Shown one piece after another: positions 1 to 17,784 of a stretch of 64,000 bases of DNA; position 1 is the first letter of the stretch, and each line of letters opens with the position of its first letter. Under the pieces are notes generated by a model that did no database searches, was not told the DNA's origin, and saw only the letters and a program-made list of their open reading frames with translations. The position numbers and the translations under genes are program-made. This DNA is from Solwaraspora sp. WMMA2065 (GTDB lineage Bacteria > Actinomycetota > Actinomycetes > Mycobacteriales > Micromonosporaceae): positions 5,394,001 to 5,458,000 of the forward strand of contig NZ_CP128361.1 of the NCBI RefSeq assembly GCF_030345075.1, given 5' to 3'.

Positions 1-204
1 CACCGCTGGTAGCCAGGAGGAGAACCATCAGCGACCTAATGAAGCAGTGCTCACGCCGCGACCGGGCGGGCACGACATCCCATCAGCGATCAACTCTCCA
101 CACCGACCAGCCGGGGCACGATCTTTCGTCAGGACTCGACGTCCAGGAACCCGGAGTGCTCACCGGCTGGCGGCTACCTACCCACCAGGAGTTTGCCGGA
201 TGGC

Positions 205-630: not shown

Positions 631-653
631 CCGCAGCCTCCCTGGTCGGACCG

Positions 654-727
654 GCGTTCAACGCGTTCAACGCGTCCAGTGTCCTCACAGGCTACCGGAG
701 GACGCCGACAATCCGTTTACTACAAAC
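654..727. promoter_or_regulatory. Repeats and palindrome upstream of the HTH gene
   Basis: Two adjacent copies of GCGTTCAAC (654-662, 663-671) and a diverged third copy (672-680) are followed by the near-palindrome GTTTACTACAAAC (715-727). They lie in the divergent gap between the regulator gene (start 630) and the DivIVA-like gene (start 897), where an autoregulatory operator would be expected. That role is inference from position and symmetry only. Confidence 0.3.
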
Positions 728-896
728 AGGTCCTGCCGCACCGGAGTAGAGCGCGGCGATGATCATTGGATGGCGAACGATTGTGCTTCGCGATTCGAAC
801 TACTAATCGGCTCATCCATAGATGCGAGTTGTCGATCAGCGTGGCCTCCCCTGGCTGTTGGCTGAGCGTTTGGTGTCGAGTTCGCGAGGAGAAGTC

Positions 897-1217
897 ATGG
901 AGCAGCGGAGCAGGCGGGGGCGGGTGGTGCCTCGGCAGGGCGTACTCGTGGAGCCGTGGCAGGTCAGGGCGGTGCAGTTCGAGACGCGGTGGCGTGGGCT
1001 GGACCCGGCGGCGGTGTACGCGTACCTGCGGCAGGTCGCCGATGTGCTGGACCGGCTCACCCGGCAGGCCGCCGTCGACCGGGCCGAGGCCGACCGGCTG
1101 CGCGAAGGGCTGCGGCAGTGGCGGCAACGCCACGTCGGCTGCCGCTTCAACGACCCGCCCGCCGGCGTCTACCAGTCGGAGCATCAGCGGCAGACCGGCA
1201 ACGGAGGCCACTGGTGA
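897..1217 (+). CDS. DivIVA-domain-like small protein
   Basis: A 106-residue basic protein. Its core (residues about 20-75) has the DivIVA pattern: a short beta region with FETRWRGLDPAAVYAYL, then a charged helix likely to form a coiled coil (RQAAVDRAEADRLREGL). The start at 897 is chosen because GAGGAGAA precedes ATG closely; a longer in-frame start at 822 lacks a ribosome site. The final GTGA is shared with the next gene, so the five small genes are probably one translationally coupled transcript. Short DivIVA-like proteins of this type are common in actinobacterial accessory clusters; their function is not established. Confidence 0.65.
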   Translation: MEQRSRRGRVVPRQGVLVEPWQVRAVQFETRWRGLDPAAVYAYLRQVADVLDRLTRQAAVDRAEADRLREGLRQWRQRHVGCRFNDPPAGVYQSEHQRQTGNGGHW

Positions 1218-1456
1218 GCGACGAACCGCGCTGGACCATCCACCTGCCGACCCGGCTCACTGACATCGAGGCCGCCGCCCGGTTCGCCGCCGCGCTGCGG
1301 GACTCGCTGGCCCACCTCGACGTCGTCGACTTCGCCGGCACCACGCTGTCGGCCACCGACCGCCCGTTGCTGCGTACCCGGGTATGGGGTGACGTCGACC
1401 CCGACCCGGCCGGCAGCGACCTGGTCAGCGACCGCACCGCGCCGGCCGATGGCTGA
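1214..1456 (+). CDS. Small hypothetical protein of the accessory cluster
   Basis: An 80-residue acidic protein with GTG start, overlapping the stop of the DivIVA-like gene by four bases and the next start by eight. Its N-terminal part (DIEAAARFAAALRDSLAHL) is predicted helical. No catalytic motif or membrane segment is visible and I do not recognise the family. The tight overlaps on both sides and strong third-position GC support it as a real gene. Confidence 0.55.
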   Translation: MSDEPRWTIHLPTRLTDIEAAARFAAALRDSLAHLDVVDFAGTTLSATDRPLLRTRVWGDVDPDPAGSDLVSDRTAPADG

Positions 1457-1652
1457 CCCCGTCCCCCGCCAGGTCGAGATCGATCACCTGACGGAGCTGG
1501 TCGACCGGCACGCGCCGCGCGCCGACGGCTGCGCCTGCGGCGACCCGCTCACCGCCGCTGGCCGCTGCTGGCGCACCGAGGTCGCGCTCACCCGGCTGCG
1601 CGACCTCGGTGTGCACGTCGCCGCCGTCGACCAGCCGGAGAACGCCGGATGA
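1449..1652 (+). CDS. Small Cys-containing hypothetical protein
   Basis: A 67-residue protein starting at ATG inside the previous gene (overlap 1449-1456). It carries HAPRADGCACGD and a later Cys (GRCWR), giving three cysteines and a histidine that could bind a metal, although no standard zinc-finger spacing is met. It ends in ATGA shared with the next gene, which supports the reading frame. Function unknown. Confidence 0.5.
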   Translation: MADPVPRQVEIDHLTELVDRHAPRADGCACGDPLTAAGRCWRTEVALTRLRDLGVHVAAVDQPENAG

Positions 1653-1864
1653 GCATGCACGTCCCCGTCCGCCCGAGCTGGGTCTGCGCCGGCTGCGGGC
1701 ATGCCTGGCCGTGCCTCGACAGCCGGCGACAACTCACGATCGAGTACGCCGACGCCCGCGTCTCCCTGTCGGTCTACCTCGCCACCAACATGGTCGAGGC
1801 GATGACCGACCTGCCGGCCGGGCACGGCTGCGACCTCTACTGGCGTTTTCTCGGCTGGCTGTGA
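1649..1864 (+). CDS. Small zinc-ribbon-like protein
   Basis: A 71-residue protein with WVCAGCGHAWPC near the N-terminus (CxxC plus a third Cys), followed by a segment with few charges that ends in an aromatic tail. Similar short proteins in Micromonospora genomes sit beside DivIVA-like genes and are often mislabelled flavin reductase; no flavin-binding motif is seen here. It overlaps the previous gene by ATGA and the next by GTGA, so it is part of the coupled cluster. Confidence 0.5.
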   Translation: MSMHVPVRPSWVCAGCGHAWPCLDSRRQLTIEYADARVSLSVYLATNMVEAMTDLPAGHGCDLYWRFLGWL

Positions 1865-2061
1865 TGTCGATGTCGATTTTGCGCCCCGGCGACGAACCGA
1901 TGCACTACGACGACGGCTCACACCGCTGGATCCCGCCCGACCCCGACTACGACCAGGAGATCTGGGAGAACCAGGTGCGTGAACACCAACACGAGCATCG
2001 CGGGCGTCCGGACCCACCCCCGCCCCGCTACCGCCTCATCCGGCGATCCGCCGCAAGGTGA
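1861..2061 (+). CDS. Small proline/acid-rich hypothetical protein
   Basis: A 66-residue protein, GTG start overlapping the previous stop; ATG codons at 1864 and 1870 are alternatives. The sequence is rich in D, P, R and H (HRWIPPDPDYDQE, then a basic C-terminus) and shows no recognised fold. It is the last gene before the tRNA-Pro locus, with about 50 bp to the tRNA terminator. Confidence 0.45.
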   Translation: MMSMSILRPGDEPMHYDDGSHRWIPPDPDYDQEIWENQVREHQHEHRGRPDPPPPRYRLIRRSAAR

Positions 2062-2111
2062 GAAACTGGACTGCACCAGCCAGGGCGCTCAGACACGCAG
2101 TTGGACATGCG

Positions 2112-2144
2112 AAGGGCCATATCGATGTGATCGACATGGCCCTT
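2112..2144 (-). terminator. Hairpin terminator after tRNA-Pro
   Basis: A 15-bp stem with one G:U pair and a 3-base loop (arms 2112-2126 and 2130-2144, each starting or ending with AAGGGCCAT/ATGGCCCTT) lies 4 bases past the tRNA 3' CCA on the minus strand. It is a strong factor-independent-type hairpin without a clear U tract, usual for high-GC actinobacteria. It may also stop transcription of the rightward small-gene cluster. Confidence 0.7.
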
Positions 2145-2148
2145 GACC

Positions 2149-2225
<77 letters not shown>

Positions 2226-2239
2226 AGGTCCGCTGGGCA

Positions 2240-2267
2240 ATACTAGCCCACCGGCTCGGCAGGGCAA
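2240..2267 (-). promoter_or_regulatory. Promoter of tRNA-Pro
   Basis: On the minus strand TTGCCC (2262-2267) and TAGTAT (2240-2245) are separated by 16 bp, and the -10 box lies 14 bp before the mature 5' end. This matches a housekeeping sigma-70-type promoter for a stable RNA. The tRNA is the only gene it could serve. Confidence 0.6.
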
Positions 2268-2368
2268 ATCCGGTATCCCCGGTGCGCCGCCGCCGGCCCA
2301 CGGGCGGCGCGTCACTGGGCCGCCGGCTGACGCAGGCTGACCTGCGTCGACGTTCGGTCAGCGTTGGA

Positions 2369-3262
2369 TCAGCGGGCGATCAACGTCAGCAAGGTGGCCT
2401 CCGGCGGGCAGGCGAACCGGACCGGCGCGGTCGGGTGGGTGCCCAGCCCGGCCGAGACGTGCAGCCACGAGTCGGTGCCCGGCCACCGGTGCAGGCCCTT
2501 GGCCATCGACCGGGGCAGGTCGCAGTTGGTGACCAGGGCGCCGACGAACGGCATGCAGACCTGCCCGCCGTGGGTGTGCCCGGCGAGCAGCAGGTCGAGC
2601 CCGTCGGCGGCCATCTCGTCCAGCACCCTGGGCTCGGGAGAGTGGGTGAGGCCGAGACTCAGGTCGGCCTCCGGCGACGGCGGGCCGGCGACGGCGGCGT
2701 AATCGTCGCGTTCGATGTGCGGGTCGTCCACACCGGCCGCGTCGATCAGCCGGCCGCCGGCCTTGAACGACGCCCGGCGGTTGTTCAGATCGTGCCAGCC
2801 GGCGCCGACCAGCACCTCGCGCAGCTCCTCGAACGGCAGGTCCGGGCCGGGTCGGTAGTCCCGCTCGGGCAGCAGGTAGCTCAGCGGGTTCTTCCACACC
2901 GGGCCGGTGTAGTCGTTCGACCCGAAGACGAACACGCCGGGTAGGTCCAGCAGGGGCTGCAGGGCCCGTAGCGCGCCCGGTACGGCGTCCGGGTGGGCGA
3001 GGTTGTCGCCGGTGACCACGACCAGGTCCGGGTCCAGCCCGGCCAGCGCCGCCACCCAGGCCTGTTTGCGCCGCTGGTCGGGCATCATGTGCATGTCCGA
3101 AAGGTGCAGGATGCGCAGCGGTTCTGCGTCCGGCGCGAGCACCGGCACGTCGAACCGGCGCAGGGTGAACATGTTGCGCTCGATGAGCGAGGCGTACGCC
3201 AGGGTGGCGGCGCCGAGTGCTGCGGTGCCGGCGGCGAGCCGGAATACGGTGCGCTTTCGCAT
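2369..3262 (-). CDS. Membrane-anchored metallophosphoesterase
   Basis: A 297-residue calcineurin-like phosphoesterase with an N-terminal hydrophobic segment (about residues 8-26) that should anchor it facing outward. Metal-ligand motifs are LSDMH (Asp56, His58), VTGDN (Asp86, Asn87) and AGHTHGG. The usual GNH(D/E) block reads GSND, as in some actinobacterial members. Position beside the ponA2-whiB4 block matches Rv3683 of M. tuberculosis. The start at 3262 is chosen because longer forms run into the divergent yqeY gene; a start at 3289 would abut yqeY. Substrate unknown, possibly an envelope phosphoester. Confidence 0.85.
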   Translation of the reverse strand: MRKRTVFRLAAGTAALGAATLAYASLIERNMFTLRRFDVPVLAPDAEPLRILHLSDMHMMPDQRRKQAWVAALAGLDPDLVVVTGDNLAHPDAVPGALRALQPLLDLPGVFVFGSNDYTGPVWKNPLSYLLPERDYRPGPDLPFEELREVLVGAGWHDLNNRRASFKAGGRLIDAAGVDDPHIERDDYAAVAGPPSPEADLSLGLTHSPEPRVLDEMAADGLDLLLAGHTHGGQVCMPFVGALVTNCDLPRSMAKGLHRWPGTDSWLHVSAGLGTHPTAPVRFACPPEATLLTLIAR

Positions 3263-3287
3263 GCCGACCAGGGTAGTTTGGCCACTC

Positions 3288-3743
3288 ATGAGCACCGTGA
3301 AGGACCGCCTGACCGCTGACATGCGGGCCGCGTTGAAGGCCCGGGACGAGCTGACCACCTCCACCCTGCGGATGGCGCTGGCCGCGATCGGCAACGCCGA
3401 GGTCGCCGGCAAGGCCAAGCGGGAGCTCTCCGACGAGGAGGCGTTGGCCGTGCTGACCAAGGAGGCGAAGAAGCGCCGGGAGGCGGCTGCGGCGTTCGCC
3501 GACGCCGGCCGGGTCGATCAGGCCGCCAAGGAGCGGGCCGAGGGCGAGGTGCTGGACCGCTACCTGCCGCGTCAGCTCGACGACGAGGCGTTGGCCGGCA
3601 TCGTCGCCACCGCACTGGCCGAGGGTGGGTTCACCGGCAAGGCGCAGATGGGCCCGGCCATGAAGGCGGCCCAGGCCGCGGTGGCCGGCCAGGCCGAGGG
3701 AGGCCGGGTGGCAGCCGCGGTACGCCGCCAGCTCGGCCTTTGA
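3288..3743 (+). CDS. GatB/YqeY domain protein
   Basis: A 151-residue YqeY-type protein. It has the family pattern: N-terminal helical domain (MSTVKDRLTADMRAALKARD, then a conserved LRMALAAIGNAEV segment), the KEAKKRREAAAAF helix, and the C-terminal tail domain (YLPRQLDDEAL with GPAMKAA). The same tail in GatB helps bind tRNA; stand-alone YqeY has an uncertain, tRNA-amidotransferase-related role. Length matches the family (about 150). It is divergent from the phosphoesterase with only 25 bp between starts, so the promoters must overlap. Confidence 0.9.
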   Translation: MSTVKDRLTADMRAALKARDELTTSTLRMALAAIGNAEVAGKAKRELSDEEALAVLTKEAKKRREAAAAFADAGRVDQAAKERAEGEVLDRYLPRQLDDEALAGIVATALAEGGFTGKAQMGPAMKAAQAAVAGQAEGGRVAAAVRRQLGL

Positions 3744-3777
3744 CCGGAAGCTGCGATAGGTGCCGAACTTGAAAGCC

Positions 3778-3812
3778 TATCGGGACTGCGAGTAGCTCCC
3801 GCAGTCCCGATA
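3778..3812 (+). terminator. Hairpin terminator after yqeY
   Basis: A 13-bp perfect stem (3778-3790 with 3800-3812; core ATCGGGACTGCG/CGCAGTCCCGAT) and a 9-base loop starts 34 bp past the yqeY stop. It also marks the left border between the core genes and the mobile-element island. Confidence 0.7.
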
Positions 3813-3990
3813 CAGTGAATGCCACTCAATACGTAAGCTCCATCGGAGCAGTTGCTTGCCTGGCCTTCAACGGCTCTTCTGAGTTGAGTGGGGTTCGCGG
3901 TTGACGGTGACCCTGGCGTAGAGGGCTCGCAGCCCTTCGGTGATCATCTGAGTGTCTAGATCGGATGTTCACAAGCGGAGAGCTGCGAGC

Positions 3991-4273
3991 ATGGTCAACA
4001 ATATGACCCGGCTGCTGGGCCTGGATGGTGGACCGGGTCAGGTTGGACCCCGACGGTGTCCCGGTGGTCGCTCTGTCTACCGCCGATGAGCAGGTACGAT
4101 GCCGCTCGGACTGCGGTGCGCGGGCCCGGCGGGTCAAGGACTGGGTGACGACCCGGCCCCGGGATCTGCCCGTGGCGAGCCGGGCGACGCGGTTACGGTG
4201 GCGCAAACGCCGCTGGCATTGCGACCAGGGTGGATGTCGACGCCGGACGTTCACCGAGCAGGTGGGCGGGTGA
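3991..4273 (+). pseudogene. ISL3-family transposase, N-terminal remnant
   Basis: Starting at MVNNMTRLLGLDG the reading continues only after a frameshift near 4030 into VDRVRLDPDG. It then shows the zinc-binding N-terminal domain typical of ISL3 transposases (CRSDCGARARRVKDW, TRPRDLPV, RLRWRKRRWHCDQGGC, FTEQ). It stops at 4273 with no catalytic DDE domain. The break lies just before the IS5-type element, so that insertion or later decay probably removed the rest. About 245 bp between yqeY and this remnant hold no other gene that I can see. Confidence 0.75.
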
Positions 4274-4306
4274 CGAACTTCCGGTGTGTCGCTGCCCGGC
4301 AAACAG

Positions 4307-4363
4307 CGAGGTCTCCGGTGGATGGCTTATCGACCAAGACGAACCATCGACACGGAGACCTCG
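4307..4363. repeat. 11-bp inverted repeat before the IS5-type transposase
   Basis: CGAGGTCTCCG (4307-4317) and CGGAGACCTCG (4353-4363) are perfect inverted repeats, and the right arm ends on the G of the GTG start at 4363. A hairpin here could mask the transposase start from read-through mRNA, a known way for IS elements to limit expression. It may instead be related to the left terminus of the element; the matching right terminus was not found. Confidence 0.45.
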
Positions 4364-5120
4364 TGACCAGCGTAGCGGTGACGAGGCGGCACGACCTGAC
4401 GGACGCTCAGTGGGCAGTCCTGGAGCCTCTCCTGCCCACCGCACGCCGGCCGGGCCGACCGCCCGCATCAACGAAACGGCAGCTCATCGACGCGATCCGG
4501 TGGCGGACCCGGGCCGGCGCCCCGTGGCGGGACATCCCCGACCACTACGGCTCCTGGGCGGCGGCGTACGCCCTGTTCCGCCGGTGGCAGCGCGACGGGA
4601 CCTGGGCCAGGATCCTGACCGCGTTGCAGGCCCTGGCCGACGCGGCGGGACGGATCGTCTGGGACGTGTCCGTGGACTCCACGATCAGCCGCGCGCACCA
4701 GCACGCCGCCGGAGCGCGTAAAAGGGGGATCTGCAGGCCGAACCGCCCGGCGGTACCGGGTCGGAACCCGACGACCACGCGTTGGGGCGTTCCCGTGGCG
4801 GACGGACCACGAAACTGCACCTGGGCTGTGAACAGGGACAGAAACCGCTGTCAATCGTGCTGACCGGTGGGCAGCGTGGCGACAGCCCGCAGTTCACGAC
4901 GGTCCTCGACCGAATCCGGGTGCCCCGGTTGATCCCGCACTCGACCCCGAGATCTACCAGCAGCGCCACGCGGTCGAGTGCGGGATCAACCGGCTCAAGC
5001 GCAACCGAGGCCGGCATCCCGGTGGTCAACCTGGACCGTGCCGTCGCGACCCGCTACGACAAACTCGCCGTCCGGTACGAGGCGACCGTGCAGGTCGCGG
5101 CGATCAACGAGTGGCTGTGA
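4363..5120 (+). pseudogene. IS5-family transposase, frameshifted and internally deleted
   Basis: The first frame (GTG at 4363) encodes the N-terminal helical domain (DLTDAQWAVLEPLLP, WRTRAGAPWRDIPD) and the first catalytic Asp (DVSVDSTISRAHQ). At AAAAGGGGG (about 4716-4724) the homologous reading moves to the -1 frame, as in two-ORF IS5 elements using programmed frameshifting. The middle part, with the second catalytic Asp, is missing after IRVPR. The third block ([17 protein letters not shown]) lies in another frame, a short foreign stretch follows, and the usual end ([17 protein letters not shown] to AINEWL) is back in frame. The transposase must be dead. Confidence 0.85.
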
Positions 5121-5426
5121 CCGACTTTGATACACGCCCTAGGGCTGTATGGTCACCACTCTCTGGGCCACGTCCAGGTGGATCCCTAGTGAATGCTGAC
5201 TGTTGGTGAACACTCAGGATCCGAGCGGTAGGGGCTGTTGTTCGGGGCCGGATCTCGTGAGTCCAGGCCTCAGTCCATCCATTGCGGTGGCTGGGGCTGG
5301 TGCCGGGACCTGCGCTTTCCTGGTTGATCACAGATGCGTAGGATCACCTCCACATCGCCGCCGGCGGCAGTCCGCTGCCCGTCCGGGTCACACCCCCGTC
5401 TCCTGTTCAGGTTCGCCACATCGGCG
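5121..5426. other. Non-coding stretch between IS remnant and GH9 gene
   Basis: About 300 bp without a convincing gene. A direct-repeat-like motif (TGAATGCTGACTGTTGGTGAACACTC at about 5190-5215 contains TGAA/TGAA) and the region around 5300 show no clear promoter. It probably holds the lost right end of the IS5-type element and the promoter of the large downstream gene. The reading frame of that gene stays open back to 5334, so its N-terminus could lie further upstream. Confidence 0.4.
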
Positions 5427-8400
5427 ATGAAGAGTTGGGTGCTGCAGTTGATGCAAACCCTAGTTTGGCTGCGAGCCAGACGTCGACCACTATGGACCTA
5501 TTGCGTTGCGCTCGCGCTGGTGGTCGTGCTGGTGGTGACCGGCCACGCACGACCCGTCGCGGCGCAGAGCGCGTCAGGCTGCGAATTCGGTGAATCGGCT
5601 CTCGAAGCTGGAGCGACCGGACCGGGTGAGGTCACGCTACGTATTGGTTGCGCCCGGGACATCGGGAGTTTCGGCGTGTTCGCAGAGCGCGACGACGACA
5701 TCGTCGCGATCCTGGAGTTCACCCCCGCCCGCGACGAGGCTGAGCTCCGCGAGATCCTGCAACGTCAGGTTGACGACGCCAACCAGGCGCGCGACGCGGG
5801 AGCCAGCCTGAGCTCGTACCTCCTCGCAAAGGCGGACGAGTTCGGGATCGGGTACTACGCGGAGCAGGACGAGGATATCGACTTCGACGGCGAGATTCAC
5901 CGGATGGCCAACCACCTGGTGATAGTGATCCCGCAGGCGGAGGTCGAGGCCGCGTGGAGTTGGATCGGCGTCCTGAAGAAGATCGCGCTGGCGTTGATCT
6001 TCTTCGGTGTCTGGGCGCTCGTCGAAGGCACCTGCGTTGCCTTCTTCGCGCCAGAGGCGCCGGTGGCCGCGGTGCTGTGCGGAGCCTTCGCGGGATTCAT
6101 CGCAGGCGGTGTACGGGAGTTGCTGTCGGCTGTCTTCGCCGGCAAGGAGATCAATAGCGACGTGTGGTCGGACGTACTCGGGACCGCGCTCGGCGGTGCG
6201 TTCGTCGGCGCGACCCTGCACGGTGCCATTCAGCTGGTCGAGTCGACTGTCCGGCCCATGTACGCCGCGCTGGGGAAGTTCCTGAGGGAGACCAGCCTCA
6301 AGGTGTGGAACTCGCTCAAGAGCCTCGTCAGCCACGCAGCCGACATGTTCACGGCCGAGGCCGCGGACGTCCTGCGCAAGGCAGTGGAGCTCGCAGCCCG
6401 GCACGGGATCGGAACGTTCGCGACCGGCAAGTGCCCCGGCTACGACCCCAGCTCCGGCAACGGCACTGGGCTCGGGTGGCAGGAACTCGGCCGGATGCAG
6501 GACGGCCTCAAGCGGCGCCTCGATCTGCTCGATAACGACAACAGCTCGGGCGAAACGGTATCGAGGACCAAACTGCAGTACGCGGACGTCGACGGCGACG
6601 GCCTGTCGGACCGGATCCTGGTCGCGGCGGCCGGACGCGCCGAACTGTCGCAGAACGTCGGGTGTGGCGAGGACGGCCAGCGGCTCTGGGCGCAGCGTAG
6701 TGACGCCGGACCGATCGAGGACATACTGGAGCAGTTCAACGCCGACCAGGTCCACTTCGGCGACCTCGACGGCGATGACCGAGCCGACCTTATCGCGGTC
6801 CTCGAGGCCAGCCAGTCACCGACCGGTGTCCCGATGATCCAAGCCTGGCGCAGTGAGTCGTCGATCAGCGACATCCGGTGGGCGGCGGGCAGCCAGGTCG
6901 CGGACAACCTCGGGTTCGCCGCTGCCGAGCGGCGCTTCTTCCTCGACATCGACGGTGACGGTGACAGCGACTACCTGACGGTCACTGCGGACAACACCGT
7001 GAGCGCCTGGGAGAACACCGCGTGGGGCCTGCCCGGGCCGGCTGATTGGAGCCGGATTGACGGCTTCGGGCATCCGGGCCAGGGACAGGGCGGCGGGAAG
7101 GTCTACTTCGCCGACGTCACCGGGGACGGCCGCGCGGATCTGCTCCTGGTCGACTACGTCACTGGCGGGGTCCAGGCATGGGAGAACGTCGGCAGCCCGT
7201 GGACCAGCTCGACCGGCTGGCGGTCACTGGGCACCATCCGGATGGGTGCGCCGCTGGCTGGTGGCTCCGGTGCGATCTTCAGCGACCTCGATGGCGACCA
7301 GGTCGCGGACCTGCTGCTGCTCGACAGCGTCGAGGGCGGCGTCGACGGTTGGCGGCTGCCGCGCTACGGGTCAGGCGAACAGGGGCCGGGCCAGCCAGGC
7401 GTACCGACCTCCCCGGAGCAGCTTCCGCCGGGGACGCTGCCGGCGTACAGCGGTGGTGATCCGCGTCCGCAGGTGACTGGCCGGCTGATTCAGAACAGCA
7501 ACTTCACCGGCAGCTTCAAACCGTGGTGGGTGAACGCGGGGATGACGCCGAAGGTGGACGGTGGGGTCTTCTGCGTGACCGCCCCGGCATCGGAGAAGCC
7601 ATGGGATGTGCTTGTCGGGCACAACAGCATCTACCTGCCACGAGGGAACTCCTACACGTTCCGGTTCCGGGTGCGGACCAGCGAGACGGTGCCGTTGGTG
7701 GTGCAGATCGCTCCGTTCGACAACCCGAACCACACGACGTACCTGGTCAAGTATCCGACCGTCACCGGCGGGGCGTGGCGGACCTACGAGTACACCTTCA
7801 ACACCAGCTTCAGCCAGGAGTACGTGCTGTCGCAGGTACAGTTCCGCCTCGGCGGGTCGGACCAGGCGTACGAGTTCTGCATGGACGACGTGACGCTCAA
7901 CGGTGCCAGCTACGTGTACCAGGCGCAGCGGGGTCCGGCGGTGAAGGTCAACCAGCACGGCTACCTGCCGCAGGGGCCGAAACGGGCGACGCTGGTGACG
8001 GACGCGGCGAACCCGCAGTCCTGGACGCTGCGGCGGGTCGGCGGCGGCGACGTGGCGACCGGGCAAACCGTCCCGGCCGGCTTCGACGGCTCGGCCGGCG
8101 CTTCGGTCCACCTGGTCGACTTCAGCTCGGTTACGGCGACCGGCCGGTTCGAGCTGGTGGTCGGTGGCCAGGCCAGCTACCCGTTCGACATCCGGACGGA
8201 CCTGTACGCGTCACTGCGAACGGACTCGATGCGGTTCTTCTACCCGAACCGGAGCGGCATCGCGATCGACGGCGGCATTGCCGGGGCGGAGTACGCCCGC
8301 CCGGCCGGGCATGTGGCGTCCTCGCCGGGCGGGGGCGACACTGCGGTGCCGTGCCAGTTCCCGCAGTCGTTCATGGACAACTGGACATGTGACTACACGC

Positions 8401-9656
8401 TGGACGTCACCGGCGGTTGGTACGACGCGGGTGACCATGGCAAGTACGTGGTCAACGGCGGCATCGCCACCTACCAGCTGCTCTCGGCGTGGGAACGGGC
8501 CGTGGCGGTGGGTCGGTCCGGGCCGCTGGGCGACTCCACCCTGGCGATCCCGGAGCGCGGCAACGGCGTGCCCGACATCCTCGACGAGGCCCGCTGGAAC
8601 CTCGAATTCATGCTGAAGATGCAGGTACCGGACGGGCTGCCACTGGCCGGGATGGTGCACCACAAGGTCCACGACGAGTCGTGGACCGGGCCGCCGATGC
8701 TGCCGCACCAGGACACGAAGCAGCGCGAGCTGCACCGGCCGTCGACGGCGGCGACGTTGAACCTGGCCGCGGTCGCCGCCCAGGGGGCGCGGCTCTACGC
8801 CCCGTACGACGCGGCCTTCGCCTCCCGGCTGCGGTCGGCGGCGCAGCGGGCCTACGCCGCGGCGCTGGCCAACCCGACGCTCTACGCGCCCAGGGCGGAC
8901 CGCTCCGGCGGTGGCCCGTACGCCGACAGCGACGTCACCGACGAGTTCTACTGGGCGGCGACGCAGCTGTACCTGACCACCGGCAGCGGGACGTACCTCG
9001 ACGCGGTGCGGGCCAACCCGTACCACACTGCGGGGGCGGCGTTCAACCAGAACGGCTTCTACTGGGGGCAGGTCGCCGCTCTCGCCCAGCTGGACCTGGC
9101 CCGCTTCGGCAGCGGACTGTCCGAGCAGGCGCAGATCCGCCATTGGGTGACGACCGCGGCGAACCGGCTGATCTCGTTCCAGCAGGCCGAACGGTTCGGG
9201 CAGACGTACACCCCGGCCAGCGGTCTGTACGACTGGGGATCGAACGCGTCGATCCTGAACAATCAGGTGGTGATCGCCACGGCGTACGACCTGACCGGCA
9301 ACACGATGTACGTCGACGCGGTGTTCGAGGCGTTCGACTACCTGTTGGGCCGCAACGCCCTCGGTCAGTCCTACGTCACCGGGTACGGCACCAACGACGC
9401 GAAGAACCAGCACAGCCGCTGGTACGCGAGGTCGTTCGACTCGACGCTGCCGAATCCGCCGGTCGGCTCGGTGTCCGGCGGGCCGAACTCCAGCCTGCAG
9501 GACCCGCTGTCGGCGTCCTGGCTGCACGGCTGCGCCCCCCAGTTGTGCTACGTGGACAACCTGGAGGCCTGGTCGACAAACGAGATCACCATCAACTGGA
9601 ACTCGGCGCTGGCGTGGGTCAGCGCCTTCGCCGCCGACGAGGCACCGCGCCGGTGA
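5427..9656 (+). CDS. Secreted FG-GAP repeat / CBM4-9 / GH9 cellulase chimera
   Basis: A 1409-residue protein. Residues 1-47 form a signal peptide (RARRR, hydrophobic core, cleavage near AAQ). Residues about 180-225 contain two membrane-like helices. Five FG-GAP/VCBS-type calcium loops follow at about 385, 444, 505, 561 and 618 (such as DVDGDGLSD, DIDGDGDSD). Then come a CBM4/9 domain (about 688-825), a CelD_N Ig-like domain (838-920) and a GH9 catalytic domain (926-1406) with DAGDHGKY (Asp1000, Asp1003), HSRW (His1329) and the acid Glu1386 in NEITINWN. Known GH9 enzymes cleave beta-1,4-glucans. GH9 proteins usually start with the CBM right after the signal peptide; the 640-residue FG-GAP part in front is unusual, and no ribosome site suggests separate translation of the cellulase. 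The start is uncertain (5334 or 5451 possible). Confidence 0.85.
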   Translation: MKSWVLQLMQTLVWLRARRRPLWTYCVALALVVVLVVTGHARPVAAQSASGCEFGESALEAGATGPGEVTLRIGCARDIGSFGVFAERDDDIVAILEFTPARDEAELREILQRQVDDANQARDAGASLSSYLLAKADEFGIGYYAEQDEDIDFDGEIHRMANHLVIVIPQAEVEAAWSWIGVLKKIALALIFFGVWALVEGTCVAFFAPEAPVAAVLCGAFAGFIAGGVRELLSAVFAGKEINSDVWSDVLGTALGGAFVGATLHGAIQLVESTVRPMYAALGKFLRETSLKVWNSLKSLVSHAADMFTAEAADVLRKAVELAARHGIGTFATGKCPGYDPSSGNGTGLGWQELGRMQDGLKRRLDLLDNDNSSGETVSRTKLQYADVDGDGLSDRILVAAAGRAELSQNVGCGEDGQRLWAQRSDAGPIEDILEQFNADQVHFGDLDGDDRADLIAVLEASQSPTGVPMIQAWRSESSISDIRWAAGSQVADNLGFAAAERRFFLDIDGDGDSDYLTVTADNTVSAWENTAWGLPGPADWSRIDGFGHPGQGQGGGKVYFADVTGDGRADLLLVDYVTGGVQAWENVGSPWTSSTGWRSLGTIRMGAPLAGGSGAIFSDLDGDQVADLLLLDSVEGGVDGWRLPRYGSGEQGPGQPGVPTSPEQLPPGTLPAYSGGDPRPQVTGRLIQNSNFTGSFKPWWVNAGMTPKVDGGVFCVTAPASEKPWDVLVGHNSIYLPRGNSYTFRFRVRTSETVPLVVQIAPFDNPNHTTYLVKYPTVTGGAWRTYEYTFNTSFSQEYVLSQVQFRLGGSDQAYEFCMDDVTLNGASYVYQAQRGPAVKVNQHGYLPQGPKRATLVTDAANPQSWTLRRVGGGDVATGQTVPAGFDGSAGASVHLVDFSSVTATGRFELVVGGQASYPFDIRTDLYASLRTDSMRFFYPNRSGIAIDGGIAGAEYARPAGHVASSPGGGDTAVPCQFPQSFMDNWTCDYTLDVTGGWYDAGDHGKYVVNGGIATYQLLSAWERAVAVGRSGPLGDSTLAIPERGNGVPDILDEARWNLEFMLKMQVPDGLPLAGMVHHKVHDESWTGPPMLPHQDTKQRELHRPSTAATLNLAAVAAQGARLYAPYDAAFASRLRSAAQRAYAAALANPTLYAPRADRSGGGPYADSDVTDEFYWAATQLYLTTGSGTYLDAVRANPYHTAGAAFNQNGFYWGQVAALAQLDLARFGSGLSEQAQIRHWVTTAANRLISFQQAERFGQTYTPASGLYDWGSNASILNNQVVIATAYDLTGNTMYVDAVFEAFDYLLGRNALGQSYVTGYGTNDAKNQHSRWYARSFDSTLPNPPVGSVSGGPNSSLQDPLSASWLHGCAPQLCYVDNLEAWSTNEITINWNSALAWVSAFAADEAPRR

Positions 9657-9663
9657 GCCACCG

Positions 9664-10280
9664 TCACCCATCGGTGATTCGTCGCTGATCTGTCGCTGAA
9701 AGCCGGCCGGCCCGCCCGGGAGAGATCCGGGCGGGCCGGCCGTTCAGCCGGGTCCGACGGCCCCTGCTGAGGACCGCGCCCGGCCGGTTGAGCTCGTCCT
9801 TGTACAGCCTGGACCTTGACCGTCTTGCCGTCGCGGTCAGGCTCCTCAGCGTTGATTCCCCGGCCGTGAAGCAGCATCCACGAACGCCACTGCGGGGAGG
9901 GCCAGACCTCCTGGACTCGGAGCCGGACCGGGCGCTTGCCGTCCACGTGGTCGCACTGCCGCAGCGCCACCAGATCACCGGGGCACACCAGAGCTTCGTC
10001 GTCAGGCATCGTCCGACGCTCCGTACGACTCGGCGGACTCGTCCTGGTCGTCGTGCGCGGGTATCCGGCGGTCATCAGCCCGGAGAGATGGAGTACGGCG
10101 CGGATCCGCCGGGCACTACTGGGGTCCCACCGGTCCAGGATGGCGATCGCCCGCAGGAACGGCCGGCAGGGGCCGGGTACGCCGCCGCACCGGTGGCACT
10201 CGCCGGTGGTCGGGTTCGGGATGTGGGTACGGGCGGTCGAGTTCGCGTCGTGGACCGCCCGGGACAGCTCGGGGGACCGT
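9664..10280 (-). pseudogene. Remnants of two small accessory genes
   Basis: Read leftward, the first remnant has HIPNPTTGECHRCGG with a CxxC plus Cys motif and a helical part (ILDRWDPSSARRIRAVL). Its natural end appears in another frame (DDQDESAESYGASDDA, stop overlapping the next ATG). The second starts at ATG 10009 (MPDDEALVCPGDLVALRQC), keeps RVQEVWPSPQWRSWMLLHG, and shifts frame near 9806, where LYKDELNRPG continues one base off. Their style is like the small cluster at 897-2061. The upstream end of the first is cut by the TnpB fragment. I infer both are decaying. Confidence 0.4.
9704..9742 (+). terminator. Hairpin terminator after the GH9 gene
   Basis: A perfect 16-bp stem (9704-9719 with 9727-9742, starting CGGCCGGCCCGCCCGG) with a 7-base loop lies 47 bp past the stop of the GH9 gene. 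Very stable; likely works in both directions. Confidence 0.8.
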
Positions 10281-10281
10281 T

Positions 10282-10567
10282 CGCCCGGGTGGACCGGTGG
10301 CTTCCGTCCACCCGGATGTGCTCGGACTGTGGCCGGATCAACGAGCGGATGGCGTTGGACGTGCGGTCGTGGGTCTGTCCGTGTGGCGGTCACCACGACC
10401 GGGACGTCAACGCGGCGATCAACATCAAGGCCGCCGGGCAGGCGGACTTCAACGACCGTGGAGCGCGGGTAGGACCGGGACCCGTCCCGGCACCGCGCGG
10501 TGAAACGGTAGCCCACCAGAACACCGCGCGTATCACGCGCGGCGTGGCTGGAATCGCCGCCGTTTAG
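10282..10567 (+). pseudogene. tnpB: TnpB (IS200/IS605 family) C-terminal remnant
   Basis: Only the last 90 or so residues of a TnpB remain: RWLPSTRMCSDCG and WVCPCGGHHDRDVNAAINI. These are the four-Cys zinc ribbon and the final RuvC Asp motif of this RNA-guided nuclease family. The first two RuvC motifs and the N-terminal half are absent; upstream DNA belongs to an oppositely oriented gene remnant. The fragment ends with the family's usual short tail and an intact element right end. Nuclease activity is not possible from this piece. Confidence 0.85.
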
Positions 10568-10584
10568 GGCGGCGAGGATGTCAA
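10524..10584 (+). mobile_element. Right end of an IS605-type element with two hairpins
   Basis: CCGCGCG/CGCGCGG (10524-10530 with 10536-10542) and TCGCCGCC/GGCGGCGA (10554-10561 with 10568-10575, loop GTTTAG) are followed by GAGGATGTCAA. This hairpin plus GGATGTCAA is the form I know at the right ends of many IS200/IS605-type elements. The same region encodes the 3' scaffold of the omega RNA in TnpB systems. The istB-like reading resumes right after it, so the element appears to have inserted into istB. Confidence 0.55.
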
Positions 10585-10757
10585 CCGTCTCACCCGACGC
10601 CGCCGAAGGCTTCTACCGCCTCGTTGACGCCGCCTACGAACGCCGCAGCCTCGCCGTCAGCTCGAACCTGCATTACGCCCACGTCGTCGTCATACAGGGC
10701 GACAGCTTCCGGCTCAACCAGGCCACCACCGGACAGCGGGTGAAATTACTGAACTGA
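10578..10757 (+). pseudogene. istB: IstB-like ATPase (IS21 family), C-terminal remnant
   Basis: The 59-residue reading carries SPDAAEGFYRLVDAAYERRS and AVSSNLH, then VVIQGDSFRLNQATTGQ. These correspond to the C-terminal part of IS21 IstB helper ATPases. A family-typical segment of about 20 residues between SSNLH and HAHVVV (the GFDELMPKT...DRLLHH region) is missing, so an in-frame internal deletion is visible. The ATG at 10578 comes from the IS605-type right end, not from istB itself. The ATPase domain is gone. Confidence 0.8.
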
Positions 10758-10995
10758 CCAGAAACACCACCCACGGCGGGGAACTAACTGGCCGCCGTTG
10801 GGGAGAACCGACGGCCGCCAGCGGGACATCCGCAGGCCGCGTTCGACAACCTGTTCACCGCCGTCCGCCCGGCACCCGGCTGACCACAGCGACACCGACG
10901 CGCGACCAGGCGGCCCGACCACACCACGAACCCCCGCCCCAACCCGGAACGACAACACCCGGAGCAAGCCGACCACGTGATCGGCGATTCGCCGC

Positions 10996-11389
10996 CCCCG
11001 AAATCTCCCAGTACCGAAACTATTCAACCGAGCTCAAGACGAGGGAGGAAGGCGAGCGGTACGGGTTCTCGCTGTGCCGCATCGACAGCGCCGGCACGCG
11101 CGACCAGACGTACGACCTGCTCGAAGTCATCCGGGTCGCCGTCGACCCACGTCAGCCGGAGAAGCTGGAGGAGAACCTGCGCGGCTGGGCGATCGCGACC
11201 CTGGCCGGCGGCCACGGGTTCGGCTGCTACCATGCCGCCTTCAGCACTCTCGACGAGGACGACCAGCCCGAGAGCGACCTCGGCAACCTCGACATCAACT
11301 GGTCCGGCTCGGAAGTTCTCGTACCGGGCGAGCAGGGGTTGAAGCGGACGGGCGGGCACCGATGTGGATCGGTGCCCGCCCGCCACTAG
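10996..11389 (+). pseudogene. Orphan C-terminal fragment of an unknown protein
   Basis: A continuous reading of about 130 codons with strong coding character (ERYGFSLCRIDSAG, QTYDLLEVIRVAVD, GWAIATLAGGHGFGCYHAAF, GNLDINWSG). It has no ATG, GTG or TTG near its beginning; the frame is simply open from the IS21 remnant side. I do not recognise the family. It is probably the 3' end of a core or island gene whose 5' part was removed by the insertions. Its last residues run through the hairpin terminator to the stop at 11387. The stretch 10758-10990 otherwise shows nothing. Confidence 0.45.
11349..11382. terminator. Bidirectional terminator after ponA2
   Basis: A perfect 15-bp stem with a 4-base loop (11349-11363 with 11368-11382; core GGGCGGGCACCGAT) lies 18 bp beyond the ponA2 stop on the minus strand. 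It is placed between convergent readings and can serve both. It also marks the right border of the mobile-element island. Confidence 0.8.
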
Positions 11390-11399
11390 ATTTCGCCAG

Positions 11400-13841
11400 T
11401 CAGTCGTCCGGGTTGCCCGGGTTACCGGGACGTCCCGGCCCGTTGCCCGGCCCACCGGGACCGTCACCGTCGCCCGGGCTCGGCTGGGCACCCTGGCCGT
11501 TGCTGACCCGGATGATCACCACTCCGCCCTTGATGGTGCGGCCGCTCGGGCTGGTGCCGGCGGCGGTGCCGGCCGGGCAGGTGGAGTCGACCGCACCGGA
11601 CCGGTCCACCTCGACCTCGAATCCGGCACCGGCCAGCCGGGACCGGGCGTTGTCGATCGACTGACACTGCACCCCCGGGATGGAGCGCTGCTCACCGCGG
11701 ACCAGTTTGCCGCTCGGTGCCTTGAACTGCTGCTTCTCCTTGCCCTTCATCGCGTCCCGCAGCGTCTCGTAGACCGCCGGGTTGACGATGTCGTGCGACA
11801 TGGTGGCGTTGGTGTCGGCCCAGTCCGGGTCGGCCAGCACCCCGGCGACGGCGAGCTGCTTGGTGGTCACCACCATGGTGGCGGTCTTCTCGGCGTCGGT
11901 GGTGCCGGTCTTGCCGGCCACCGGGTGCCCGACGATGCTGCGTACGCCACCGGCGGTGCGGCTCCGGCACTGCGACGTCGACGAGTTGTCACCGACCGGG
12001 CAGCGCGCCGCGTCGATCGCGGCCCGGGCCACCTCGGTGGAGACCACCTGCTTGCACTGCGGCTGGGCGATGTCCAGGCTGTTGCCGTCCTGGTCGCGGA
12101 TCTCCTTGACCGGGATCGGCTTGCAGTACTTGCCGTCGGCGGCGAGGGTGGCGTACGCGTTCGCCATCTCCAGCGGCGTGGTGCTGGAGACGCCGAGGGT
12201 GAAGGCGCCCCACTGGTTGGCACCCTCCGGGTCGGCGGCGAACCGGGCGTCGTTGGAGGCCCGGAAGGTGATGCCGAGGCGCTGCGCCACGTCGACGGCG
12301 GAGGCCGCGCCGACCCGCTCCTGCAGCGGCACGAAGTACGTGTTGACCGAGGCGCCGAAGGCGCTCCACATGTTGTGTACGCCGTTCATGCTGGAGTTGG
12401 CGTTCTTGGGGCAGTACTTGTTGGTGCCCGCGCAGGCGGCCGGGCTGCCCCGTTCGACAATGTACTTCGACTCGTACGGGCTCTTGGCGTTGATTGTGTA
12501 CTCCAGTGGGTAGCCCTTCTCCAGGGCCGCCACCAGCGGGAAGATCTTGAACGTCGAGCCGAACTGGTAACCGGTGATGTCACCGCCACCGGTCAGCAGC
12601 GGGTTCGTGGTGTTCGGGTAGGTGCCCCGGATGCCCTTGTCGGCTTTCTTCGGGTCGCTGGAGAGCTTGTTCTTCGGGTTGTCCGGGTCGTCGAGCTTGT
12701 AGTTGCGGTTGACCGCCATACCGCGTACGTACCCGGTGCCCGGCTCGACCGCCGCCACCATCAGCGCGTGCTTGCTGCCGGTCTTCAGCGCGTCCTCGAC
12801 GGCGTTCTTCGCCGCGTCCTGCGTCTGCAGGTCGAGGCTGGTGACGATGTGGTAGCCGCCGCTCTTGAGCCGCCGCTCCCGGTCGTAGCTGGTGGCACCG
12901 AACGTCTCCTGCTCCATCCACCAGCGGTAGAAGAAGTCGCAGAAGAAGCCCCAGTGGTTCTTGTTGGCGGCGACGCAGCCGTTCGGCGCGCGCTTGCCGT
13001 TGACGACCAGCTCGACGGCCTTGGCCTCGTCGGCTTCCTCCTGGGTGATCGCCCCGGTCTTGACCATGTTGTCGATGACGTAGTTGCGCCGGTCGACGGC
13101 CTGTGGGTAGCCACCCGGCGTGGTCGGGTCGAACGCCGTCGGGGCCTTGACCAGGCCGGCGAGCATGGCGGCCTCGTCGATGGTGAGGTCCGCCGGCTGC
13201 TTGCTGAAGTAGACCTGGCTGGCGGCGAAGACGCCGTACGCGCCGTTGCCGAACGGGGCGATGTTGAGGTAGCGCTCCAGCACCTCGTCCTTGGTCATCT
13301 CCTTGGTGAGCTGCATCGCGTACTTCATCTCGCGCAGCTTCCGGGCGTTGGTGTCCTCGGTGGCGGCGATCACGTCCTCGGGGTGGGTCGCCGAGTAGGC
13401 GATGGCCAGCCGGACGTACTGCATGGTCAGCGTCGAGGCGCCCTGGGTGGTCTCGCCGGCGCCCTGGTTGGCGACGAAGGCCCGGGCGACACCCTTGACG
13501 TCGACCCCGTTGTGCTCGTAGAAGTTGTGGTCCTCGGCCGCGATGATCGCCGCCCGCATGATCGGTGCGACGTCCTTGATCGGGACGTCGCGGCGGTTCT
13601 CGTCGTACATCGCGGCGAGCGTGGTCTTGCCGTCGGCGGCGTACAGGTAGCTGATCTGCGGCGCTCGCTTGACGGTCAGCTCGCTGGGCAGCTTGTCGAA
13701 GGTCTCCGCGCCTGCCTTGGCTGCCAGGCCAGACATCGCCACTGCGGGGAACGCGGCAGCGGCGACCACCACGCCGGCCAGCAGCCCACAGATCAGCAGC
13801 GATGCGGCGTTGGTCAGTGGGTTGTGGTCTCGCTTCCGCAT
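11400..13841 (-). CDS. ponA2: Class A penicillin-binding protein with PASTA domain (PonA2-like)
   Basis: An 813-residue bifunctional peptidoglycan synthase. A single N-terminal membrane helix (residues 13-36) is followed by a GT51 transglycosylase domain with AAEDHNFYEHNG (catalytic Glu103) and GASTLTMQYVR. The transpeptidase domain has GSTFK (Ser429, Lys432), ASVN and KTGTTD. One PASTA domain (about 715-780) and a Pro/Gly/Asp-rich tail follow. It polymerises and cross-links glycan strands outside the membrane. It lies divergent from wblA/whiB4, as ponA2 does in M. tuberculosis. ATG at 13841 is chosen; a longer open frame upstream has no ribosome site. Confidence 0.93.
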   Translation of the reverse strand: MRKRDHNPLTNAASLLICGLLAGVVVAAAAFPAVAMSGLAAKAGAETFDKLPSELTVKRAPQISYLYAADGKTTLAAMYDENRRDVPIKDVAPIMRAAIIAAEDHNFYEHNGVDVKGVARAFVANQGAGETTQGASTLTMQYVRLAIAYSATHPEDVIAATEDTNARKLREMKYAMQLTKEMTKDEVLERYLNIAPFGNGAYGVFAASQVYFSKQPADLTIDEAAMLAGLVKAPTAFDPTTPGGYPQAVDRRNYVIDNMVKTGAITQEEADEAKAVELVVNGKRAPNGCVAANKNHWGFFCDFFYRWWMEQETFGATSYDRERRLKSGGYHIVTSLDLQTQDAAKNAVEDALKTGSKHALMVAAVEPGTGYVRGMAVNRNYKLDDPDNPKNKLSSDPKKADKGIRGTYPNTTNPLLTGGGDITGYQFGSTFKIFPLVAALEKGYPLEYTINAKSPYESKYIVERGSPAACAGTNKYCPKNANSSMNGVHNMWSAFGASVNTYFVPLQERVGAASAVDVAQRLGITFRASNDARFAADPEGANQWGAFTLGVSSTTPLEMANAYATLAADGKYCKPIPVKEIRDQDGNSLDIAQPQCKQVVSTEVARAAIDAARCPVGDNSSTSQCRSRTAGGVRSIVGHPVAGKTGTTDAEKTATMVVTTKQLAVAGVLADPDWADTNATMSHDIVNPAVYETLRDAMKGKEKQQFKAPSGKLVRGEQRSIPGVQCQSIDNARSRLAGAGFEVEVDRSGAVDSTCPAGTAAGTSPSGRTIKGGVVIIRVSNGQGAQPSPGDGDGPGGPGNGPGRPGNPGNPDD

Positions 13842-14236
13842 CAAGGTCACCCAGTCAGGGTACGTGAGGGACTGAAGAGGTCGCCGTGTGGCGCACCTGT
13901 GCATTTCCTGCCGGCTCCGGCCTCGTTGTGCTAAACGCAGAGACCCGTCCGGCGGTTGTGGTCTCCGCCGCCTACTTTCCCCCCGGGAAGGTGTGGGTGG
14001 CGGGGTTTCCCCGTTTCCGCCTCGGGTACCCCTGCTCGGCAGAGCGCCCGGGAAGGGTGTTGTGTCCGGATAAGCGGATTTCGCCAATAACGTTGCGTAA
14101 TCACCCAACTACAGAACATGATGGTCCGGCGAGGATCGCACGGCGGCGTGCTGCGGGGGAAAGCAGCGTCAGCCGCCCGGCTTGCCGACTGACTCCACCG
14201 GTTGCAAGCGGAAATTGCTAGGGGGGACGTGGAACG
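13842..14236. other. Divergent intergenic region ponA2 / wblA
   Basis: A 395-bp region without a gene. It must hold the promoters of ponA2 (leftward) and wblA (rightward). A lower-GC patch at 14060-14125 (CAATAACGTTGCGTAATC) is the likely wblA promoter area, but I cannot fix -35 and -10 boxes. The long leader of more than 100 bases before wblA is typical of wbl genes, which are often controlled at the RNA level. Confidence 0.4.
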
Positions 14237-14533
14237 ATGGGCATGATCGCTGATTGGCCCAGCCTGGCGGCGTGCCAGAGCGGAGACCCGGACGCGTTGT
14301 TCGTGCAGGGCGCTGAGCAGAACGTGGCCAAGCGCATCTGCCGGGGTTGCCCGGTCCGGTACGAGTGCCTGGCCGACGCACTCGACAACCGGATCGAATT
14401 CGGGGTCTGGGGCGGCATGACCGAGCGGGAACGGCGGGCTCTGCTGCGCCGGCACCCGCAGGTGGCGAGCTGGCGCAGAATGTTCGAAGCAGCCATGCGG
14501 GACCGCGAAAAGGTGCTCGTCGCCACCAAGTGA
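14237..14533 (+). CDS. wblA: WhiB-family iron-sulfur regulator (WblA/WhiB4-like)
   Basis: A 98-residue Wbl protein. Four cysteines (13, 35, 38, 44) in the C-Xn-C-X2-C-X5-C pattern bind a [4Fe-4S] cluster. The family turn FGVWGGMTERERR (about residues 55-67) is followed by a basic C-terminal tail for DNA contact. Synteny (ponA2 on one side, paired ArsA ATPases on the other) matches whiB4 in M. tuberculosis and wblA in Streptomyces, where it affects redox response, development and antibiotic production. Wbl proteins usually act with the primary sigma factor. The assignment to this subgroup is from synteny. Confidence 0.9.
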   Translation: MGMIADWPSLAACQSGDPDALFVQGAEQNVAKRICRGCPVRYECLADALDNRIEFGVWGGMTERERRALLRRHPQVASWRRMFEAAMRDREKVLVATK

Positions 14534-14585
14534 TCCGCTGAACCGGGAGCTGTGCAGGACCAGAGGGAGCTGCGCGGGGCCAGGC

Positions 14586-15731: not shown

Positions 15732-15768
15732 CAGTCGAGCGTATCGGGGTCGGCCCAGGATCCGCCGA

Positions 15769-16785: not shown

Positions 16786-16807
16786 CCAGACTAGTGCGCG
16801 ACGCCGC

Positions 16808-17641: not shown

Positions 17642-17784
17642 CCCCAGGTTTCAGGTCTCGTCGTCGGCGGACGGTAGCCGCCACCAGACGGTCAGGGTAT
17701 CTGGCCGACGCACCCGGCTCACCCTCCCGGCCGTTGGCCTTAGGCTGTGGCGGTTGCCGAATCAGAGCTAGGAGCCGTAACGCG

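What the first reader, a model, noticed from the sequence alone, without database searches (positions are those of the whole stretch)
5427..9656. FG-GAP repeat region fused to a GH9 cellulase
A single open frame carries a signal peptide, two membrane-like helices, five calcium-loop FG-GAP repeats, a CBM4/9 and a complete GH9 enzyme. FG-GAP repeats in integrin-like propellers bind ligands; in front of a cellulase they are unusual. The five-repeat number suggests an incomplete propeller, and the join near residue 680 is a Pro/Gly-rich linker, as if two genes recombined in frame.
Basis: partly seen in the sequence, partly recalled or inferred. Interest (0 to 1): 0.7.

Follow-up and report, generated by a model that had tools for sequence, protein, structure and literature searches.

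The report
Cellulase family with exchangeable front ends
An actinobacterium carries a probably borrowed gene for a cellulose-cutting enzyme whose front half is swapped in relatives for quite different parts, and which lacks the DNA switch that marks most related cellulase genes compared here.

Summary
The ORF is real: signal peptide, hydrophobic N-module, five FG-GAP repeats, CBM4/9, CelD_N and an apparently intact GH9 enzyme in one frame. It is not a fresh in-frame accident. Micromonospora sp. HNM0581 has the same 1440-codon frame (93% nt), two more genomes have the same order, and a third apparently has it split over two contig ends. The GH9 half belongs to a clade of 11 genes found in 10 of 354 family genomes, with three kinds of head: N-module (5), CdtB-like nuclease domain (5), PI-PLC-X (1). 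The same five-repeat module also joins an N-module to a GH18 chitinase, so five is its conserved number. The N-module matches no known family here and also heads GDSL esterases and GH43 enzymes. In the window genome the gene lies on a lineage-specific insert of about 7.6 kb with transposon remnants, probably acquired from or shared with Micromonospora. CebR boxes mark 32 of 35 other GH9 genes but 0 of 10 clade genes. Most likely it is a secreted, membrane-associated cellulase used outside cellulose nutrition; an effector role against cellulose-walled cells is possible but unshown. Both structure predictions failed, so propeller closure stays open.

The parts
   Evidence: Met at 5451 shared with L016, L077 and L078 leaders
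5451..5564 (+). signal peptide (basic n-region, hydrophobic core, AxA-like end; judged by eye)
   Evidence: hydrophobic stretch 2.15
5565..6386 (+). N-module: undescribed domain with conserved Cys and a hydrophobic, Gly-rich stretch
   Evidence: profile A1; no Pfam hit over cut-off; 20 of 354 family genomes
5949..6089 (+). possible hydrophobic hairpin (segments 5949-6005 and 6033-6089); invariant Cys 203 and 218 flank a Pro-containing turn in the second
6561..7391 (+). five-repeat FG-GAP module
7431..7472 (+). linker GTLPAYSGGDPRPQ, kept under all head types
7485..7814 (+). CBM4/9
7929..8171 (+). CelD_N Ig-like domain
8205..9620 (+). GH9 catalytic domain, CbhA-like (1ut9, E 8e-148)
8433..8435 (+). 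second Asp of the DAGD motif (catalytic base by homology, role recalled)
9582..9584 (+). Glu of the NE motif (catalytic acid by homology, role recalled)
   Evidence: aligned to CbhA chains
3746..11350 (.). stretch absent at this place in six genus-mates (bounds differ by up to about 300 bp between mates)
   Evidence: GC 68.1% against 71.9% in the rest of the window
4396..5120 (+). broken IS4/IS5-type transposase
   Evidence: PF13340 94.8 bits at 4396-4614; DDE_Tnp_1 piece below its cut-off (20.2/23) at 4803-4925
10271..10426 (+). TnpB-type zinc-finger remnant
   Evidence: PF07282 51.3 bits

Best explanation
A probably horizontally acquired, secreted GH9 cellulase of the CbhA type, belonging to a small Micromonosporaceae clade built as head + five-repeat FG-GAP + CBM4/9-CelD_N-GH9. 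Shown: the architecture, its conservation and selection, different heads on one GH9 clade, the lineage-specific insert, and the absent CebR box. Inferred: the N-module associates with a membrane through its hydrophobic stretch, most simply holding the enzyme at the producer's surface; the FG-GAP module acts as calcium-stiffened spacer or binder; the CBM finds glucan; GH9 cuts cellulose. Because the clade lacks the mark of the cellulose-nutrition regulon, the enzyme is probably used for contact with cellulose-bearing surfaces (plant, alga, oomycete, biofilm) and not for bulk feeding.
For: Domains over Pfam cut-offs; the DAGD and NE motifs are intact in 11 of 11 clade members and align to CbhA. 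The same order occurs in HNM0581, G374 and G299. Low dN/dS in all four domains. The clade groups apart from the 15 other GH9 rows in the tree (91/100), and types A and B each form one branch. The four domains are 91-97% identical in HNM0581 (signal peptide 67%, spacer 86%), while the neighbouring PBP is only 68% identical between the same two genomes. The stretch is missing at this place in 6 of 6 genus-mates, and the N-terminal half and close GH9 copies were not found in those genomes. CebR box: 32 of 35 other GH9 genes against 0 of 10 clade genes (Fisher p = 9e-8, rows not independent). The N-module also precedes GDSL, GH43 and GH18 enzymes, as a localisation module would.
Against: No assay, expression or localisation data. 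The hydrophobic segments of the window copy are only moderately hydrophobic and the topology is ambiguous. Absence of a CebR box does not exclude another cellulose-responsive regulator; two of the five type B genes have a LuxR-type AAA regulator directly downstream. Three of the 35 other GH9 genes lack the box too. Structure prediction failed.
Confidence: 0.5

Rival explanations
1. Secreted effector against cellulose-walled cells: GH9 (or GH18 for chitin walls) opens the wall, FG-GAP and CBM bind, and the exchangeable head (CdtB-like nuclease, PI-PLC-X, membrane-inserting N-module) injures the cell beneath.
For: Three kinds of head on one conserved GH9 clade; CdtB-like heads keep nuclease-type motifs (roles recalled); no CebR box in 10 of 10; patchy distribution and transposon remnants beside the window copy and the HNM0581 copy.
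Against: The N-module also heads GDSL and GH43 enzymes; no neighbour recurs across types as a partner or immunity gene would; no target-cell data.
Confidence: 0.2
2. Ordinary plant-biomass cellulase, anchored or multi-domain, under a regulator other than CebR.
For: The GH9 half is a standard CbhA-type enzyme; the N-module also occurs with esterases and GH43, families typical of hemicellulose breakdown; LuxR-type regulators lie next to two type B genes.
Against: It lacks the CebR box that 32 of 35 other GH9 genes carry; CdtB-like and PI-PLC heads have no obvious role in biomass breakdown.
Confidence: 0.25
3. Accidental fusion or decaying gene, as 'two genes recombined in frame' would suggest for this genome.
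For: Transposon remnants on both sides.
Against: Same frame in HNM0581, same order in further genomes, dN/dS 0.10-0.17 in the domains.
Confidence: 0.03

Closest known systems
Clostridium thermocellum CbhA/CelK-type GH9 cellobiohydrolases (PDB 1ut9; NCBIfam CelK NF049990)
   Same: CelD_N + GH9 align over nearly the whole 1ut9 chain (5-604 of 609); CelK model matched at 91-809 of 889
   Different: 582.5 bits against the CelK equivalog cut-off of 1700; the 1ut9 chain has no room for N-module or FG-GAP
FG-GAP / integrin-alpha-type beta-propellers; nearest solved sequences are Tc-toxin B subunits (YenB, TcdB2), weak, E 2e-4
   Same: FG-GAP calcium loops
   Different: five repeats, not the seven recalled for integrin-type propellers; the matches cover one to two repeats only
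GDSL esterases with FG-GAP repeats (FusH type, NCBIfam NF000157)
   Same: FG-GAP part of the window protein matches FusH model positions 258-494; some relatives join N-module + GDSL + FG-GAP
   Different: window protein has no GDSL domain; 49.9 bits against an equivalog cut-off of 999
Cytolethal distending toxin B family (heads of type B relatives only)
   Same: L081 head: NCBIfam family E 1e-42, PDB CdtB chains E 4e-29
   Different: below the equivalog cut-off (145.9 against 189); fused to FG-GAP-GH9; the window protein has no such head

Membership tests
GH9 cellulase | GH9 catalytic domain over the Pfam cut-off | tested here: met
   321.5 bits against 27.7
GH9 cellulase | catalytic Asp (DAGD) and Glu (NE) | tested here: met
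   roles recalled, positions aligned to CbhA
GH9 cellulase | activity on cellulose | not testable with these tools
   no assay
FG-GAP repeat protein | FG-GAP repeats with calcium loops | tested here: met
Integrin-type seven-bladed propeller | seven repeats | tested here: not met
   five, conserved in all 11 aligned copies
Integrin-type seven-bladed propeller | closed propeller fold | tested here: inconclusive
   models of pLDDT 34.5 and 40.0
CebR cellulose regulon | CebR box at the promoter | tested here: not met
   none at the gene within 3 mismatches; in the whole window only two 3-mismatch sites, at 3420 and 24835, fewer than chance; the three other GH9 genes of this genome have a box
Polymorphic toxin or effector | exchangeable toxic domain with a constant part | tested here: inconclusive
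   different heads shown; toxicity of any head not tested
Polymorphic toxin or effector | adjacent immunity gene | tested here: inconclusive
   ORFs of 80 aa or more beside the clade loci and the GH18 locus compared with each other: shared neighbours only within pairs; a small or unrelated immunity gene would be missed

The most novel reading that the evidence does not exclude
A family of 'wall-breaching' effectors: a GH9 cellulase (GH18 in a sister protein), cut loose from cellulose nutrition, carries exchangeable heads through cellulose (or chitin) walls of eukaryotic neighbours by means of a shared five-repeat FG-GAP coupling module; in the window protein the head is an undescribed membrane-inserting N-module.
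Probability: 0.18. Interest if true: 0.8.

Novelty: new variant of a known kind. Interest (0 to 1): 0.52.

Why it matters
If right, it shows cellulases recruited out of the nutritional regulon into a modular, horizontally moving family in which the same GH9 is paired with a membrane domain, a CdtB-like nuclease or a phospholipase. It gives a concrete system for asking how actinobacteria attack or touch cellulose-walled organisms, defines a new N-terminal domain found on several kinds of hydrolase, and defines a discrete five-repeat FG-GAP module suited to structural work.

Tried and rejected
Fresh in-frame recombination in this genome: rejected (same frame in HNM0581). Sequencing error hiding a stop: rejected. 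Incomplete propeller: not supported, since five is conserved; closure undecided. Structure: two AlphaFold jobs (window + L016 only) gave pLDDT 34.5 and 40.0 and were not searched further. Viral contigs: the FG-GAP profile found no relative. Plasmids: 20 records, all Streptomyces, below 60% identity, none covering 80% of the query. Outside the family: the N-module profile rang in 1 of 396 phylum genomes, the window's own, and the GH9 half at E<=1e-250 likewise only in its own. The genome searches scored only the best candidates per genome (about 2 to 7), so copies can have been missed.

Set aside before counting: N-module matches in G030 and G381 (L136, L137; partial) and a lone 289-aa protein in G121 (L133) were not counted as architectures; G197 (L095, 649 aa, no Pfam hit) matched only and is not among the 20. 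CebR count: the 35 other GH9 genes are those that searches returned as loci, so they lean towards the best-scoring; L025 and L031 were dropped as duplicates of L002 and L003; L079 was left out because its gene start is not on its contig (its possible other end, L138, has no box); L003, L072 and L083 had shortened upstream stretches. When whole type B proteins were scanned at E<=0.01, Exo_endo_phos was not listed; it was when heads were scanned alone, except L084.

Literature: no held paper has FG-GAP+GH9+cellulase, FG-GAP+Micromonospora, or FG-GAP+glycoside hydrolase+propeller+carbohydrate-binding. FG-GAP+chitinase gave 8 and FG-GAP+cellulase 5; of these I read passages of PMC8767351 only (no fusion mentioned there) and listings of the rest. 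Searches were seen as listings; I read passages of PMC4898821.
Full report
What is there. The open frame 5334-9656 (+) encodes 1440 residues. Pfam places FG-GAP_3, CBM_4_9, CelD_N and GH9 in order, each above its curated cut-off. Five calcium loops lie at residues 387, 446, 507, 563 and 620 counted from the Met at 5427; none of 5000 residue shuffles of the region yields five. The leaders of the window, HNM0581, G374 and G299 share a Met that corresponds to 5451, so that is the likelier start. The catalytic domain aligns with CbhA cellobiohydrolase (1ut9, E 8e-148). The Asp (DAGD) and Glu (NE) motifs are intact in 11 of 11 clade members.

It is not alone. A pattern scan of bacterial genomes with the first 378 residues, which finds close relatives only, returned one, Micromonospora sp. 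HNM0581, with the same 1440-codon frame. HNM0581 is taken to be G331 because the contig has the same length (163,124 bases). DNA identity is 92.9% over 5264-9663 and stops at both ends of the gene. The proteins are 94% (N-module), 91% (FG-GAP), 95% (CBM + CelD_N) and 97% (GH9) identical with dN/dS of 0.16, 0.17, 0.16 and 0.10; the signal peptide (67%), spacer (86%) and linker (93%) give 0.33, 0.33 and 0.38. The whole chain is therefore kept by selection, its front end most loosely.

The GH9 clade. Among 354 genomes of the family (up to about three candidates scored in each), the GH9 half has 11 places in 10 genomes at 75-100% identity; the next best listed are at 55% or less. A tree of these 11 with 15 other rows puts the 11 together (support 91/100), with type A (97/99) and type B (99/100) each on one branch. 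Heads: type A, N-module + FG-GAP (window, G331, G374, G299; G252 has FG-GAP-GH9 starting at one contig end and an N-module running into another contig end, left unjoined). Type B, CdtB-like nuclease domain + FG-GAP (G366, G371, G259, G233, G370): the NCBIfam CdtB family matched 2 of 2 tested (E 1e-42 and 2e-39, both below the equivalog cut-off); Pfam Exo_endo_phos is over its cut-off in 4 of 5 heads, L084 missing, and was not listed when whole type B proteins were scanned; L081 matches solved CdtB chains at E 4e-29. Type C, PI-PLC-X without FG-GAP (G374 C43). A linker of the form GTLPxYxGGxPxPQ is present in 11 of 11, so the exchange point lies upstream of it.

The FG-GAP module. The same five-repeat module aligns over its full length in 10 GH9 proteins (5 type A counting G252, 5 type B) and in a protein of G351 whose tail is a GH18 chitinase (258 bits, cut-off 29.6). 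The fifth loop is degenerate in type B and in the GH18 protein. Related GDSL and GH43 proteins show other repeat numbers, from one or two to about nine by crude counts. Five is thus a fixed property of this module. Two AlphaFold runs, restricted to window and HNM0581 sequences, were of no use (pLDDT 34.5 and 40.0).

The N-module. Aligning 13 N-modules gives four invariant positions, among them two Cys (window residues 203 and 218). No Pfam or NCBIfam model and no solved structure matches convincingly. A profile finds it in 20 of 354 family genomes and, in a sample of 396 genomes of the phylum, only in the window's own. Tally of the 20: GH9 proteins 5 (G000, G331, G374, G299, G252 by contig end); GDSL, six with FG-GAP and two with fn3, 8 (G259, G315, G350, G110, G220, G269; G373, G143); GH43 with or without GDSL and FG-GAP 3 (G166, G342, G343); GH18 1 (G351); a lone 289-aa protein 1 (G121); partial matches inside other proteins 2 (G030, G381). 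The FG-GAP match in G315 is below the Pfam cut-off (18.5/26.9). All clear partners are hydrolase families, which favours a localisation role.

Acquisition. In the six other genomes of the genus the YqeY and metallophosphatase genes (window 2369-3743; Pfam) lie next to the penicillin-binding protein whose 3' end is near window 11400: about 0.1 kb or less apart in four (G001, G005, G006, G003), with 2.2 kb of other DNA between in G004 and about 4 kb in G002. The stretch that holds our gene is not there in any of the six; G002 shares one 285-bp piece (window 11044-11325). The stretch has 68.1% GC against 71.9% for the rest of the window and carries a broken IS4/IS5-type transposase and a TnpB-type zinc-finger remnant. 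The PBP is 68% identical between this genome and HNM0581, while the gene's four domains are 91-97%. Transfer from, or a shared source with, Micromonospora is the simplest reading.

Neighbours. An all-against-all comparison of ORFs beside the clade loci and the GH18 locus found close shared neighbours only in pairs: G374 with G299 (an SDR-like gene, some kilobases away, 94%), G366 with G233 (a LuxR-type AAA regulator directly downstream, 82%; Pfam) and G366 with G371 (a gene upstream, 88%). The remaining matches between loci are distant (31-37%, for example SDR-like genes of G374, G299 and G252) or pieces of transposon-like genes. Nothing is shared between the window and another clade locus; the window and the GH18 locus share only a short piece (window 4025-4273, 63%) that lies next to the transposase remains, and G374's PI-PLC locus shares a 63-aa piece with the GH18 locus. 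An effector with a constant partner gene is therefore not indicated, though a small immunity gene would be missed.

Regulation. CebR, the repressor of cellulose genes in Actinobacteria, binds TGGGAGCGCTCCCA (PMC4898821, passages read). Within -500 to +150 of the first possible start codon, 32 of 35 other GH9 genes from this genome, genus and family have this box (27 perfect, 5 with one mismatch; missing in L062, L068 and L072, the last with a cut upstream stretch). Of 10 clade genes none has it within two mismatches, nor within three from -600 to +200 (L083 had only 154 bases upstream), nor anywhere in the fetched loci or window 1-20000 within two. Fisher p = 9e-8, with the caution that rows are related and that the other genes are those that the searches returned as loci. 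The three other GH9 genes of the window's genome all have the box (one with a mismatch). The clade has left, or never joined, the cellulose regulon.

Mechanism. Shown: architecture, conservation, different heads on one clade, insertion, absent CebR box. Inferred: secretion; membrane association through the hydrophobic stretch; FG-GAP as spacer or binder; glucan binding by the CBM; cellulose cleavage. I favour a membrane-associated cellulase used on living or structural cellulose and not for feeding (0.5). That CdtB-like and PI-PLC heads occur in the same slot keeps an effector reading open (about 0.2), against which stand the missing partner gene and the plain hydrolases that share the N-module. 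An ordinary biomass enzyme under another regulator remains possible (0.25).

Novelty. No held paper has FG-GAP together with GH9 and cellulase, or with Micromonospora; five mention FG-GAP and cellulase somewhere, of which one was opened at the passages. Each domain except the N-module is known; the combination and the range of heads make a new variant of a known kind.

Noticed in passing
L081-L085 (G366, G371, G259, G233, G370): Relatives in Micromonospora carry a CdtB-like nuclease head in front of FG-GAP and GH9 on one chain.
   Followed up: partly
L081 205-3162 and L084 7982-10861: LuxR-type AAA regulators, 82% identical, lie directly downstream of two type B genes; possible alternative control to CebR.
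   Followed up: partly
L080 3956-7465: PI-PLC-X domain fused to CBM4/9-CelD_N-GH9, in the same genome (G374) as a type A protein.
   Followed up: partly
L135 7234-10299: N-module and the same five-repeat FG-GAP module fused to a GH18 chitinase.
   Followed up: partly
L092, L093: N-module + GH43 + GDSL + about eight FG-GAP repeats on one chain of about 1400 residues.
   Followed up: no
L016 5723-8116: LamG-type (Laminin_G_3) protein directly downstream of the HNM0581 copy; no related ORF was found beside the other copies.
   Followed up: partly
L137 7234-10746 and L136 4840-9099: Weak N-module matches, mostly over the hydrophobic stretch, inside what looks by eye like an RHS-type protein and a large protein of another kind; may be compositional.
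   Followed up: no
window 3746-11350: Lineage-specific stretch beside a conserved YqeY-metallophosphatase-PBP locus, with transposon remnants.
   Followed up: partly
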